Origin: Amycolatopsis lexingtonensis | GTDB lineage: Bacteria > Actinomycetota > Actinomycetes > Mycobacteriales > Pseudonocardiaceae | Assembly: GCF_014873755.1 (NCBI RefSeq) | Contig: NZ_JADBEG010000001.1 | Span: 1,490,501 to 1,554,500, forward strand | DNA: 64,000 bases | Reading direction: 5' to 3' | Shown: one piece after another, positions 915-32,407 of the stretch | How the letters are laid out: every line of letters begins with the position of its first letter | How positions within the stretch are numbered: the stretch's first letter is position 1 | Notes under the pieces: generated by a model | Told to the model about the DNA's origin: nothing | The model's input: only the letters and a program-made list of their open reading frames with translations | Databases searched by the model: none | Program-made: the position numbers and the translations under genes

Positions 915-2240
915 ATGACCGCGGTCGACGAGCCCCGCGCCGCGGCGGTGGGTGACGTGGCCCGCGCTGGGGTGGCCGATCCGAGCAGTGTGGCCGCCGG
1001 GCCGGGCAGCGCGGCGCCTGAAGCGAGCGCGAGCCACGTGGGCAAAGCCCTGCCTGCTCCCTTCCTCGGCCTCGTCCTCGCCATGGGACTGTCCTCCTTC
1101 GGCGACGCGGTCTGGCTCATCGCTCTCTCCATCACCCTCGTCGGCACCGCCGGTCCCGCCCTCGCCGGCCTGGTCCTCGCCCTCGGCTCCCTCCCCAAAG
1201 TCCTCACCCTCCTGGTCGGCGGCGCAGTAGCCGACCGGACCGGGCCGCGGCGCGTCCTCATCACCACCGATCTCATCCGCGCCGGTGCCATGCTCGGCGG
1301 GGCCGCCGCCGTCCTGGTGGTCGGGCCCGACGTTCCGCTGCTCGCCGGGCTGATCGTCGTCATGGCCGTCGCCAGTGCCTTCTTCATCCCGGCCTCCGAC
1401 GCCCTGCGCCCGAACCTCCTGCCGCCCGAGCACCTCGTGCGGGGGAACGCCGTCTACCTCGCCGCCGTGCGTGGGGGGCAGGCTGCCGGTGGGGCGCTCG
1501 GGTCGTGGCTGGCCGGGCTCGGGGGGCTGGTCACCGTCGCCGCCGTCAACGGGGTCAGCTTCCTCGTCTCCGCGCTCGCCGCCGGGAACACCAAGACGCT
1601 GACCAGCAAAGAACCGCGTGAACGCGTCAAGCTCCGGCAGCTGGGCAAGGAAATAGCCGAAGGCGCGCGGTACGTCGCGAGAAGGCCCGCGCTGCGGACC
1701 GCCATGATCGTCACCGGGCTGCTCGAACTCAGCGGGGCCGGGCCGATCAACCTCGGGCTCGTCCTGCTGGGCGGGAACCAGGGCGCGGGCTGGCTGCTCA
1801 CCGCCATGACGCTCGGCGCGTCCCTCGCCTTCGTCGTCTCGGTCAAGTGGCCGCCGCGGGAGAAGGCCGGGCGGCTCGCCACCGCCGGGCTCGCCGCCCA
1901 GGTCGGCTGCCTGGCCCTGCTGGCCACCGGGAACCTCGCCGTCGGCATCGCCGCCTTCTTCGCACTCGGGCTGGTCGCCGGGCTGACCGCGCTGGTGCTC
2001 GTCAGCCTCGCCCAGCGGTGGTCGGCGCCGGAGATGCGCGGGCGCGTGATGTCGATCCTCGCGCTCTTCACCCTCGCCGCCACCCCGATCGGCAACCTGT
2101 TGATCGGCGTCCTGGTCGAGGCGCTCGGCGTCCCGCTGACCATGTTCGCCCACGCCGCGGTCGCGCTCGTCGCGCTCGCCCTGCTCGTCGCCACCCCGGC
2201 ACTCGGCCGGGCCGCCCTCACAGAGGAGAAGAAATCATGA
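915..2240 (+). CDS. MFS transporter, probable peptide exporter
   Basis: The 441-residue protein has a polar N-terminus of about 45 residues followed by roughly 10-12 hydrophobic segments. The loop [10 protein letters not shown] (about residues 106-115) matches the MFS signature between TM2 and TM3. It resembles the EntS/MFS_3 group of siderophore and drug exporters. The stop codon overlaps the start of the mbtH-like gene (ATGA), so the two are probably translationally coupled and in one operon with the NRPS genes. Export or self-resistance for the peptide product is the likely role, inferred from position. The start at 915 has no strong ribosome site; a start further in would remove only the polar leader. 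Confidence 0.85.
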
Positions 2241-2443
2241 GCAACCCCTTCGAAGACGAGAACGGCACCTTCCTCGTCCTGGTCAACGACGAGAACCAGC
2301 ACTCGCTCTGGCCGTCCACTGTGGACGTCCCGGCCGGCTGGCGGACCGTGCACGGCGAGGACACCCGCGCCGCGTGCCTGGAGTACGTCGAGAAGAACTG
2401 GACCGACCTGCGCCCGGCGAGCCTCGTCGCCGCGATGCGCTGA
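2237..2443 (+). CDS. MbtH-like NRPS chaperone
   Basis: A 68-residue protein, the usual length for the family. It shows the conserved [10 protein letters not shown] stretch, PAGW, and WTDLRPASL at the end, including the invariant Trp residues. MbtH proteins bind adenylation domains and are often needed for their folding or activity. It overlaps the exporter gene by four bases and lies about 40 bp before the first NRPS gene. A GAGGAGAAG ribosome site sits just upstream. The partner is presumably one or more adenylation domains of the two NRPSs that follow. Confidence 0.95.
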
Positions 2444-2483
2444 CCCTTCCCCGCCGGCAGTGAACGAACTGGAGCTGATCACC

Positions 2484-31274: not shown

Positions 31275-31291
31275 CCGCCAAGGAGCCTGTT

Positions 31292-32407
31292 GTGACCACT
31301 TTCGCCGACGACCTCGCGACCCTCCGCCCGGAGACCTCCGCCAACCAGGGCGCGTACGTCGAACTCCGCAGCGACACCTTCACCCTGCCGACGCCCACGA
31401 TGCTGGAAGCCGCCGCGCGTGCCCCGCTCGGCGACGACGTCTACGGCGAGGACCCGACCGTGGACCGGCTGGAGCAGCTGTCCGCCGAGCTGCTCGGCAA
31501 GCAGGCCGGCTGCCTGATGCCGAGCGGCACGATGGCCAACCTGACCGCGCTGCTGGCGCACTGCCCGCGTGGCGGCAAGGCGATCGTCGGGCACGAGTCC
31601 GATGTGTACGTCTACGAAGCCGGCGGCGCGTCGCTCTGCGGCGGCATCGTCTACGACCCGCTGCCGAACCTGCCCGACGGCACGATCGACCCGGCCGCGA
31701 TCGCCGAGGCGTGTGCGGTGGACCGCAGCGACCCGCAGATCGCGCCGCCCGCGGTGCTCAGCCTGGAAACCCCGCAGAACCGCTGCGGCGGGCTGCCGCT
31801 GCAGCTGGACTACCTCAGCGAGGTGTCCCGGCTGATCCGCTCCCACGGCGTCGCCCTGCACCTCGACGGCGCCCGCCTGTTCAACGCGGCGGTCGCGCTC
31901 GGCGTCAGCCCGGCCGAGGTCGCGAAGCACGCGGACACCGTGCAGATCTGCCTGTCGAAAGGCCTGTGCGCCCCGATCGGCTCGGTCCTGGTCGGCGACC
32001 GCGTGACGATCGCGGCGGCCCGCCGCATGCGCAAGATGCTCGGCGGCGGCATGCGCCAGGCCGGCATGATCGCGGCCTGCGGCATCGTCGCACTGACGGA
32101 GATGACCGAGCGCCTGGCCGACGACCACGCCCGCGCGGCCCGCCTGGCCCGCGGCCTGTCCCGCATCCCGGGCGTCCGGCTCGACCCGGGCCCGCCGCTG
32201 ACCAACATGGTGTTCTTCAAGGTCCGCGACGACCGCTACACGACCCGCACTCTGATCGAAGCGGCCCGGCGCCGCGGGATCCGGGTGGAGGAGCTGGGCC
32301 ACGACCGCATCCGCGCGGTGACCCACGCGGGCGTGGACGACGACGCGGTGGACCGCGCGGTCTCGGTGTTCGGCGACCTCCTGGGCCACGACGCGATGGT
32401 GCGCTGA
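31292..32407 (+). CDS. L-threonine aldolase family PLP enzyme
   Basis: A 371-residue fold-type I PLP protein. It shows LRSDTFTLPTP at the start, GDDVYGEDPTV, the PLP-stacking HESDVYVYEAGG region, the cofactor Asp in HLDGARLFNAA, and Lys223 in LSKGLCAPIGS as Schiff-base lysine. GTG 31292 follows AAGGAG. The family cleaves threonine or allo-threonine to glycine and acetaldehyde, and can run in reverse. In this cluster it could supply glycine (A3 looks Gly-specific) or set the beta-carbon configuration of the hydroxy amino acid that is phosphorylated. It is the last gene of the apparent NRPS operon and is followed by a palindromic repeat facing an oppositely oriented gene. Confidence 0.87.
   Translation: MTTFADDLATLRPETSANQGAYVELRSDTFTLPTPTMLEAAARAPLGDDVYGEDPTVDRLEQLSAELLGKQAGCLMPSGTMANLTALLAHCPRGGKAIVGHESDVYVYEAGGASLCGGIVYDPLPNLPDGTIDPAAIAEACAVDRSDPQIAPPAVLSLETPQNRCGGLPLQLDYLSEVSRLIRSHGVALHLDGARLFNAAVALGVSPAEVAKHADTVQICLSKGLCAPIGSVLVGDRVTIAAARRMRKMLGGGMRQAGMIAACGIVALTEMTERLADDHARAARLARGLSRIPGVRLDPGPPLTNMVFFKVRDDRYTTRTLIEAARRRGIRVEELGHDRIRAVTHAGVDDDAVDRAVSVFGDLLGHDAMVR

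What the first reader, a model, noticed from the sequence alone, without database searches (positions are those of the whole stretch)
915..32407. Octamodular NRPS cluster with a built-in 2,3-diaminobutyrate pathway
Seen: A-T(C-A-T)6 plus C-A-T-TE with intact core motifs, MbtH, exporter, and a kinase/PLP/ATP-grasp/lyase/aldolase cassette in the same direction with overlaps. Known: Thr kinase, beta-replacement PLP enzyme and argininosuccinate-lyase homologue are linked to 2,3-diaminobutyrate in friulimicin-type and uridyl-peptide clusters. Inference: an octapeptide of about Ser-x-Gly-x-x-diaminobutyrate-x-Asn; I know of no compound with this order.
Basis: partly seen in the sequence, partly recalled or inferred. 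Interest (0 to 1): 0.75.

Follow-up and report, generated by a model that had tools for sequence, protein, structure and literature searches.

The report
Orphan octapeptide assembly-line gene cluster
An Amycolatopsis soil bacterium carries a complete assembly line for an eight-residue peptide together with genes that very probably make two unusual building blocks for it; the enzyme types are known, the product is not.

Summary
In detail: A-T-(C-A-T)6 plus C-A-T-TE (8 A, 7 C, no E domain), MbtH, MFS exporter and a kinase/SbnA-like PLP/ATP-grasp/lyase/aldolase cassette, all on +. The host is Amycolatopsis; 10 of 80 genomes of the genus have the cassette's PLP gene at 94% identity or more. The module 6 pocket (DDVQISQID) belongs to a rare class. 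A DNA motif of it is in 2 of 394 Streptomycetaceae and 11 of 80 Amycolatopsis genomes; in all 13 a 2,3-diamino-acid PLP gene lies near it. Modules 2, 4 and 5, unlike 6 and 8, match SlgN1, which loads 3-methylaspartate. Likely product: Ser-x-Gly-(3-methyl-Asx?)-x-diaminobutyrate-x-Asn(-like). A Streptomyces family with hexamodular NRPSs has the same two supply sets, so the combination is not unique. It is an orphan cluster of known enzyme types; MIBiG and chemistry could not be checked.

The parts
1..796 (+). 3' part of an FMN glutamate-synthase-like gene; it starts 458 bp left of the window. Further left on the same strand lie asparagine synthetase A, glutamate mutase E and glutamate mutase S (L001 16309-19046)
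   Evidence: PF01645 7.2e-17; L001 genes PF02310, PF06368, PF00152; NF005052 438.6 bits over cut-off 368; same order in 5 of 5 other actinomycete genomes found by the synthase-like protein
915..2240 (+). MFS exporter
   Evidence: PF07690 1.4e-29
2237..2443 (+). MbtH-like protein, 68 aa, ATGA overlap with the exporter
   Evidence: PF03621 102 bits; frame
2460..22508 (+). NRPS1, 6682 aa, A-T-(C-A-T)6
2460..4313 (+). module 1 (A-T), pocket DVWHLSLVD, Ser (code meaning recalled)
4314..7322 (+). module 2, pocket DAFFYGGIF (DAFFYGAIF in relatives), SlgN1-like A domain, substrate unknown
   Evidence: 4gr5 best PDB match, 440 bits
7323..10337 (+). module 3, pocket DILQLGMIW, Gly (code meaning recalled)
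10338..13328 (+). module 4, pocket DGLHMGGGY, SlgN1-like; best candidate for 3-methyl-Asp/Asn
   Evidence: 4gr5 best PDB match, 472 bits
13329..16421 (+). module 5, pocket DATDMGGGF, SlgN1-like, substrate unknown
   Evidence: 4gr5 best PDB match, 489 bits
16422..19526 (+). module 6, pocket DDVQISQID, 2,3-diamino acid (Dab); class motif at 18309
19527..22508 (+). module 7, pocket DALLVGMVV, substrate unknown
22505..26485 (+). NRPS2, module 8, C-A-T-TE, pocket DLTKVGEVA, Asn-like (code meaning recalled)
26497..27420 (+). GHMP kinase, proposed L-threonine kinase (a GTG start at 26482 is also possible)
   Evidence: PF00288/PF08544; among the 120 relatives listed, two are named threonine kinase and many 'involved in propanediol utilization' by their sources
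27426..28451 (+). SbnA-like PLP beta-replacement enzyme (a GTG start at 27417 is also possible)
   Evidence: TIGR03945 227.1 bits, below its cut-off 349.95; best PDB match SbnA 5d87
28451..29641 (+). ATP-grasp ligase
   Evidence: PF13535, PF18603; NF002563 302.1 bits over that family's N-terminal part
29799..31274 (+). argininosuccinate-lyase-family C-N lyase
   Evidence: PF00206; NF002563 396.4 bits (cut-off 625), TIGR00838 269.4 (cut-off 279.5); PDB argininosuccinate lyases, best 5.5e-54
31292..32407 (+). GntG-family PLP aldolase; right end of the cluster
   Evidence: NF041359 433.9 bits over cut-off 230; the next two genes find no match in the roughly 5 kb read right of the aldolase in L005, L006 and L007

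Best explanation
One run of same-strand genes of about 35.6 kb builds a mostly L octapeptide on an eight-module NRPS that starts with a bare A-T module (free Ser N-terminus) and ends with a TE. Two built-in pathways supply unusual residues. (1) A PduX-like kinase makes O-phosphothreonine. The SbnA-like PLP enzyme replaces phosphate by the amine of an amino acid, probably aspartate, and the lyase removes fumarate to leave 2,3-diaminobutyrate, which A6 loads; the aldolase probably feeds or sets the (allo)threonine; the ATP-grasp step is unresolved. (2) Glutamate mutase S/E makes 3-methylaspartate and the asparagine synthetase A homologue may amidate it, the FMN protein perhaps supplying glutamate; the product is loaded by one or more SlgN1-like domains (A4 first choice, then A5 or A2). 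The MFS protein exports the peptide. Shown: domains, gene families, order, conservation and co-occurrence. Inferred: every chemical step and every residue name.
For: All eight pockets are kept in order in G467 and G462 (A2 G to A) and in NBRC 101858 (A2 G to A, A6 V to I). DDVQLSTID domains occur twice each in L084, L085 and L087, aldolase-bearing Streptomyces clusters whose C domains score 73-395 against the profile made from the window, against 632-695 in whole C domains of the window's own relatives. The motif search found G388 without knowledge of the cassette and the five cassette genes lie beside it. In 19 Streptomyces genomes or records with the four cassette genes the motif is in 5 of 5 with the aldolase in the cassette and 0 of 14 without. 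In L099 and L101 the same pocket sits directly behind SbnB-SbnA over NCBIfam cut-offs. The lyase signature SSSMMPQKRNP is kept. Quartet mutS-mutE-asnA-FMN protein: in 5 of 5 other genomes with the FMN protein at 1e-40, each with NRPS domains beside it, and upstream of the NRPS in 3 of 3 aldolase-less Streptomyces clusters read in full. SlgN1 is the best PDB match of A2, A4, A5 (440-489 bits) but not of A6 or A8 (236 and 247 bits).
Against: The aldolase-less Streptomyces clusters carry the Dab-type cassette but no A6-type motif (0 of 14); their readable special pockets are DALQMAGGF (8 of 14 loci) and DSYYWGAVF, so which domain loads Dab there is unknown and other pockets for Dab must exist. 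G459 has the four genes next to an A domain DAFYFGVIW. The PLP protein is below the SbnA cut-off and the lyase below the argH one. Nine of the motif-positive Amycolatopsis genomes carry one orthologous cluster, so they are not independent. A4 has H where SlgN1 has Q, and a review gives SlgN1's substrate as 3-methyl-Asp, not its amide. The role of the ATP-grasp protein is a guess. No chemistry was seen.
Confidence: 0.74

Rival explanations
1. The cassette makes Dab, but module 4 or 5 loads it; A6 loads another residue that needs the aldolase, for example a beta-hydroxy amino acid.
For: Aldolase-less cassettes sit beside DALQMAGGF domains, 51-57% identical to A4 and A5 in L132 and L134 and more like A5 than any other window domain. 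The A6-type motif follows the aldolase exactly in the Streptomyces set, 5 of 5 against 0 of 14.
Against: The aldolase-less clusters also hold the mutase quartet: mutE at E 2e-120 or better in 13 of 14, a partial match in the 14th, and next to the NRPS in the 3 read in full. So their SlgN1-like DALQMAGGF domains are explained by 3-methyl-Asx. In L099 and L101 the A6 pocket stands behind SbnB-SbnA, with no aldolase matched in those stretches. Pockets that could be read in L084-L088 include no GGGF type (a few A domains there were not readable).
Confidence: 0.13
2. The ATP-grasp and lyase act as a pair (aspartate ligated to a carboxylate, fumarate released, giving a carboxamide) and the kinase/PLP pair makes the diamino acid by another route, or makes something else.
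For: ATP-grasp and lyase match two halves of one fused family, NF002563; kinase plus PLP without matches to the other two occurs in Nocardiopsis loci L034, L035, L037, in the stretches held.
Against: A homologue of npsG, proposed for Dab, was needed for mureidomycin (PMC4572928, passages read; which of the enzymes it is was not checked here).
Confidence: 0.08
3. The cluster is silent or decayed and makes nothing.
For: No expression data.
Against: No internal stops in the cluster genes; order and eight pockets conserved in relatives whose cluster proteins are about 85-96% identical.
Confidence: 0.03

Closest known systems
Dab genes of uridyl-peptide and friulimicin/gausemycin-type clusters
   Same: Genes proposed for 2,3-diaminobutyrate: in PMC4572928 an npsG homologue was proposed for Dab and its loss abolished mureidomycin; cluster B188M101 lists a cysteine-synthase and an argininosuccinate-lyase gene (PMC12471526). 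Passages read only
   Different: No uridine genes and no split NRPS; no lipid-starter C domain on module 1; no E domains; GntG aldolase in the cassette. The pacidamycin and friulimicin Dab gene lists are recalled, not seen, and no sequence comparison with them was made.
Streptolydigin 3-methylaspartate supply (SlgE1-SlgE2-SlgE3, SlgZ) and its A domain SlgN1
   Same: PMC5357945 (passage) names slgE1-slgE2-slgE3 for 3-methylaspartate, SlgE3 as a ferredoxin-dependent glutamate synthase and SlgZ as asparaginyl-tRNA-synthetase-like; that SlgE1/E2 are the mutase is recalled. A2, A4, A5 have SlgN1 (4gr4/4gr5; substrate in PMC11253843, passage) as best solved match
   Different: Pure NRPS octapeptide; no PKS family among the cluster proteins scanned; no gene-to-gene comparison with the slg cluster
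SbnA/SbnB 2,3-diaminopropionate pathway
   Same: SbnA is the best solved match of the PLP enzyme and a lysine lines up with SbnA's (that it is the PLP lysine is recalled); the A6 pocket class stands behind true SbnB-SbnA in L099 and L101
   Different: Below the SbnA cut-off, no SbnB; a kinase, an ATP-grasp protein and a C-N lyase instead
Uncharacterised Streptomyces hexamodular family (ITFR-16 plasmid, NBC_00572, CB02009)
   Same: Same layout: mutase quartet, NRPSs, kinase/PLP/ATP-grasp/lyase
   Different: Six modules with pockets DSYYWGAVF x2, Val/Ile-like x2 (code recalled), DALQMAGGF x2; no aldolase in the cassette; no A6-type motif
Uncharacterised Streptomyces clusters with the five-gene cassette (NBC_01707 plasmid, CoH27, PsTaAH-137, SolWspMP-5a-2, NRRL B-24457, G388)
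   Same: Cassette with aldolase and two A domains of the A6 class by motif
   Different: Different NRPS layout where read (L084-L088); no mutE match in 4 of the 5 searched, the fifth (NRRL B-24457 genome) has one on another contig; a 26% match to the asparagine synthetase in L002

Membership tests
2,3-diaminobutyrate cassette | Threonine-kinase-like + SbnA-like PLP + ATP-grasp + lyase, adjacent | tested here: met
2,3-diaminobutyrate cassette | Product is Dab | not testable with these tools
   needs enzyme assay
SbnA/SbnB diaminopropionate pathway | SbnA over its NCBIfam cut-off and SbnB present | tested here: not met
   227.1 against 349.95 bits; no SbnB-type family among the cluster proteins scanned
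Streptolydigin-type 3-methylaspartate supply | Mutase S and E, glutamate-synthase-like and AsnRS-like proteins together | tested here: met
   PMC5357945 passage; mutase proteins are below the NCBIfam cut-offs
Streptolydigin-type 3-methylaspartate supply | A domain with the SlgN1 pocket | tested here: inconclusive
   A4 DGLHMGGGY against DALQIGGGF read off the alignment
Friulimicin-type lipopeptides | Lipid-starter C domain on the first module (as in PMC9113097), FAAL and ACP | tested here: not met
   module 1 is A-T; no FAAL or free ACP among the cluster proteins scanned
Friulimicin-type lipopeptides | Asp-Gly-Asp-Gly calcium motif | tested here: not met
   pockets of modules 1-8
Known compound in MIBiG | Close match of both NRPSs | not testable with these tools
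   MIBiG not held

The most novel reading that the evidence does not exclude
The cluster makes an undescribed octapeptide with a free amino end that combines 2,3-diaminobutyrate and 3-methyl-Asp/Asn, and the pocket class DDVQ[LI]S[TQ]ID is a general, so far unlisted signature of 2,3-diamino-acid loading, whose Dab-making partner is the cassette with a GntG aldolase.
Probability: 0.5. Interest if true: 0.6.

Novelty: new member of a known kind. Interest (0 to 1): 0.45.

Why it matters
An intact and conserved orphan cluster with two non-standard building blocks is a good target for compound discovery. The pocket class would let other 2,3-diamino-acid peptides be recognised from sequence, and the mutase quartet with SlgN1-like domains does the same for 3-methyl-Asx. 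The aldolase correlation (5 of 5 against 0 of 14) raises a testable question: whether the aldolase decides the stereochemistry of diaminobutyrate.

Tried and rejected
Rejected: reading A6 from the cassette alone (aldolase-less cassettes show other pockets, so pockets were tested across genomes). Rejected as cluster genes: aldo/keto reductase 32469-33350, TetR 33434-33994 and the GH31/ABC sugar genes (first two without a match right of the aldolase in L005, L006, L007). Left open: the LanM gene upstream, at 84% or more only in the ten cluster genomes and at 61% or less in 33 others of 80.

Led nowhere: paper searches for the pocket letters (0 papers), for Dab with lyase and NRPS terms (0 with all four), for an Amycolatopsis octapeptide (35 papers, 25 listed, listing only). 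The A8 search of solved structures was first sent in a wrong frame and found nothing; it was repeated in frame. An MbtH scan was in a wrong frame; repeated. A7, A2 and A5 could not be assigned; A1, A3 and A7 were not compared with solved structures.

Limits: GrsA position numbering, standard pocket meanings (Ser, Gly, Asn, Val/Ile), PduX as threonine kinase, SbnA chemistry, and the pacidamycin and friulimicin gene lists are recalled. Two versions of the DNA motif were used (stricter at one codon). Fisher p-values (8.6e-5 and 1.8e-9) ignore descent.
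Full report
WHERE. The window is 1490501-1554500 of a 10.74 Mb single-contig genome. The nearest named kinases are from Amycolatopsis: A. eburnea 97%, NBRC 101858 95%, A. iheyensis 95%, A. pretoriensis 94%. The PLP gene at E 1e-100 is in 13 of 80 genomes of the genus: 10 at 94% or more and 3 at 52-60%.

OBSERVATION. Seven condensation-family places lie inside the window, all C domains, so no residue is expected to be epimerised by the line itself. Genes can overlap from NRPS1 to the ATP-grasp gene; the lyase and aldolase follow gaps of 157 and 17 bp.

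Left of the window, same strand: a B12-binding mutase S (L001 16309-16794), mutase E (16809-18032), an asparagine synthetase A (18063-19046, NF005052 438.6 bits over 368) and an FMN glutamate-synthase-like gene (19043 to window 796) (the two mutase proteins are below their NCBIfam cut-offs). The FMN protein was sought in 394 genomes of the class: 6 have it at 1e-40, one being the window's own. In the other five, mutE and the asparagine synthetase are next to it, and longer stretches show mutS and NRPS domains as well. [quoted passage not shown] The quartet is therefore of a known kind. Amidation to 3-methylasparagine is my inference.

POCKETS. By alignment (A7): A1 DVWHLSLVD Ser, A2 DAFFYGGIF, A3 DILQLGMIW Gly, A4 DGLHMGGGY, A5 DATDMGGGF, A6 DDVQISQID, A7 DALLVGMVV, A8 DLTKVGEVA Asn-like (meanings recalled). 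A2, A4 and A5 are 57-62% alike and all have 4gr5 as best solved match, 440, 472 and 489 bits. As a check, A8 and A6 score only 247 and 236 bits against it and have other best matches; A1, A3 and A7 were not tried. A review table lists 4gr4/4gr5 as SlgN1 with (2S,3S)-beta-methyl-Asp (PMC11253843, passages read). The SlgN1 pocket read off the alignment is DALQIGGGF. In the five other quartet clusters a similar pocket (D[AG]LQF[GA]GGF) is in 3 (L114, L116, L121) and not found in 2 (L118, and L123, a 9 kb contig). A4 is the nearest of the window's eight.

MODULE 6. The A6 class has the stretches FDDAAVE and WGATEVSID. DDVQLSTID occurs twice in each of L084, L085 and L087, clusters chosen because they carry the cassette with the aldolase, and once in what L011 holds. 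A DNA motif for FDDAAVE was then searched without regard to the cassette. Family of G005 (Streptomycetaceae): 2 of 394 genomes, G005 itself and G388; G388 has kinase, PLP, ATP-grasp, lyase and aldolase beside it. Amycolatopsis: 11 of 80; the reversed-pattern control rang in none of the rows listed. Ten of the eleven are PLP-positive; by the coordinates the motif lies about 9 kb from the PLP gene in nine and 20 kb in G429 (a second G429 copy lies beside SbnB-SbnA). The eleventh, G452, has SbnB-SbnA directly before the domain (TIGR03944 404.8 over 326.9; TIGR03945 370 over 349.95). Of the 12 motif-positive genomes with the cassette-type PLP gene, kinase, PLP, ATP-grasp and lyase were read in 8 (G000, G005, G388, L004, L006, L007, G462, G467); in G429 PLP, ATP-grasp, lyase and aldolase with a 37% kinase match further off; in G442, G448 and G470 the PLP gene alone was seen. 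PLP-positive but motif-negative: G440 (a V to I variant, DDIQISQID in L089), G459 and G423. The class therefore seems to mark 2,3-diamino acids, Dap or Dab according to the neighbouring pathway. Nine of the eleven are one orthologous cluster; I count about four settings (window type, Streptomyces type, G429, SbnAB type).

ALDOLASE AND THE SISTER FAMILY. Of 19 Streptomyces genomes or records with the four cassette genes, the motif is in 5 of 5 with the aldolase in the cassette and in 0 of 14 without. One of the 14 (G171) has an aldolase homologue on another contig; in one of the five (G874) motif and cassette lie on different contigs. Among the 14, DALQMAGGF was read in 8 loci (L003, L014, L017, L019, L020, L022, L023, L024); in the other six no pocket could be read. 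mutE is found at E 2e-120 or better in 13 of the 14 and as a partial match in G009; of the five with aldolase only G874 has one, on another contig. Three of the 14 were read in full: L132, L133/134 and L135/136 show mutS-mutE-asnA-FMN protein, NRPSs with six A domains (DSYYWGAVF x2, two Val/Ile-like, DALQMAGGF x2) and the four cassette genes. So the pairing of both supply sets is shared by a Streptomyces hexamodular family, DALQMAGGF there is explained by the mutase quartet, and which domain loads Dab there is unknown. In the window the quartet goes with SlgN1-like domains and the aldolase-bearing cassette with the A6 class; this is the simplest reading, not a proof.

PATHWAY. Two of the 120 kinase relatives listed are named threonine kinase and many 'involved in propanediol utilization' by sources; PduX being an L-threonine kinase is recalled. 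The PLP enzyme aligns with SbnA including a lysine at 'MK'; that this is the PLP lysine, and SbnA's use of O-phosphoserine and an amino acid, are recalled. The lyase keeps the SSSMMPQKRNP signature and matches argininosuccinate lyases, among them 6g3d and 6rx8; that the latter act on diamine succinates is recalled. From this: Thr to O-phospho-Thr, beta-replacement by Asp, loss of fumarate, Dab. The ATP-grasp step is unexplained; it and the lyase match two halves of one fused family.

CONSERVATION AND EDGES. G467, G462 and NBRC 101858 keep the gene order from mutS to aldolase and the eight pockets with A2 G to A (and A6 V to I in the last). G467 and G462 have a second MbtH between lyase and aldolase that the window lacks. 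The aldo/keto reductase and TetR genes right of the aldolase find no match in L005, L006 and L007, so the cluster ends at 32407.

COMPARISON. Not friulimicin-like (no lipid start, no calcium motif), not uridyl-peptide-like, not streptolydigin-like as a whole; it shares a supply set with each. Searches in the held papers: (listings); passages were read of PMC4572928, PMC12471526, PMC4282715, PMC9113097 (also its outline and abstract), PMC5357945, PMC11253843 and PMC11355689. None of what I saw describes this cluster, but most subscription papers are not held and MIBiG is not available, so absence from print is not shown.

VERDICT. New member of a known kind.

Noticed in passing
L001 12393-15899 (left of the window, - strand): A LanM-type lanthipeptide synthetase (638.9 bits over cut-off 304) followed by three related 56-59 aa ORFs that contain no cysteine; related ORFs lie behind the LanM in L126 and L129 (two each) and L131 (three). 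A LanM with cysteine-free candidate precursors is odd.
   Followed up: partly
L132, L133/L134, L135/L136: Uncharacterised Streptomyces clusters with mutase quartet, six A domains and the Dab-type cassette, one on a plasmid of a bark-beetle isolate; the nearest relatives of the window's cluster in overall layout.
   Followed up: partly
L101 11926-18742 and L099 4197-11019: SbnB-SbnA plus an A-T didomain (DDVQLSTID), MbtH, glutamate mutase S/E in two Amycolatopsis genomes, and in L101 a cysteate-racemase-like gene; looks like a cluster for a peptide with Dap and methyl-Asp.
   Followed up: partly
L114, L117, L118/L119, L121, L123: mutS-mutE-asparagine synthetase A-FMN synthase-like quartet beside NRPS genes in five further actinomycete genomes.
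   Followed up: partly
L034, L035, L037 (Nocardiopsis): Kinase and PLP gene without matches to the ATP-grasp and lyase genes, beside NRPS modules and MbtH; a mutE piece in L037.
   Followed up: no
L124 4004-4174, L127 4159-4329: A second MbtH gene between lyase and aldolase in two relatives, absent in the window.
   Followed up: no
window 33996-43275: Sugar-use genes: GH31, ABC importer, LacI regulator and GH3-CBM6, apparently unrelated to the cluster.
   Followed up: no
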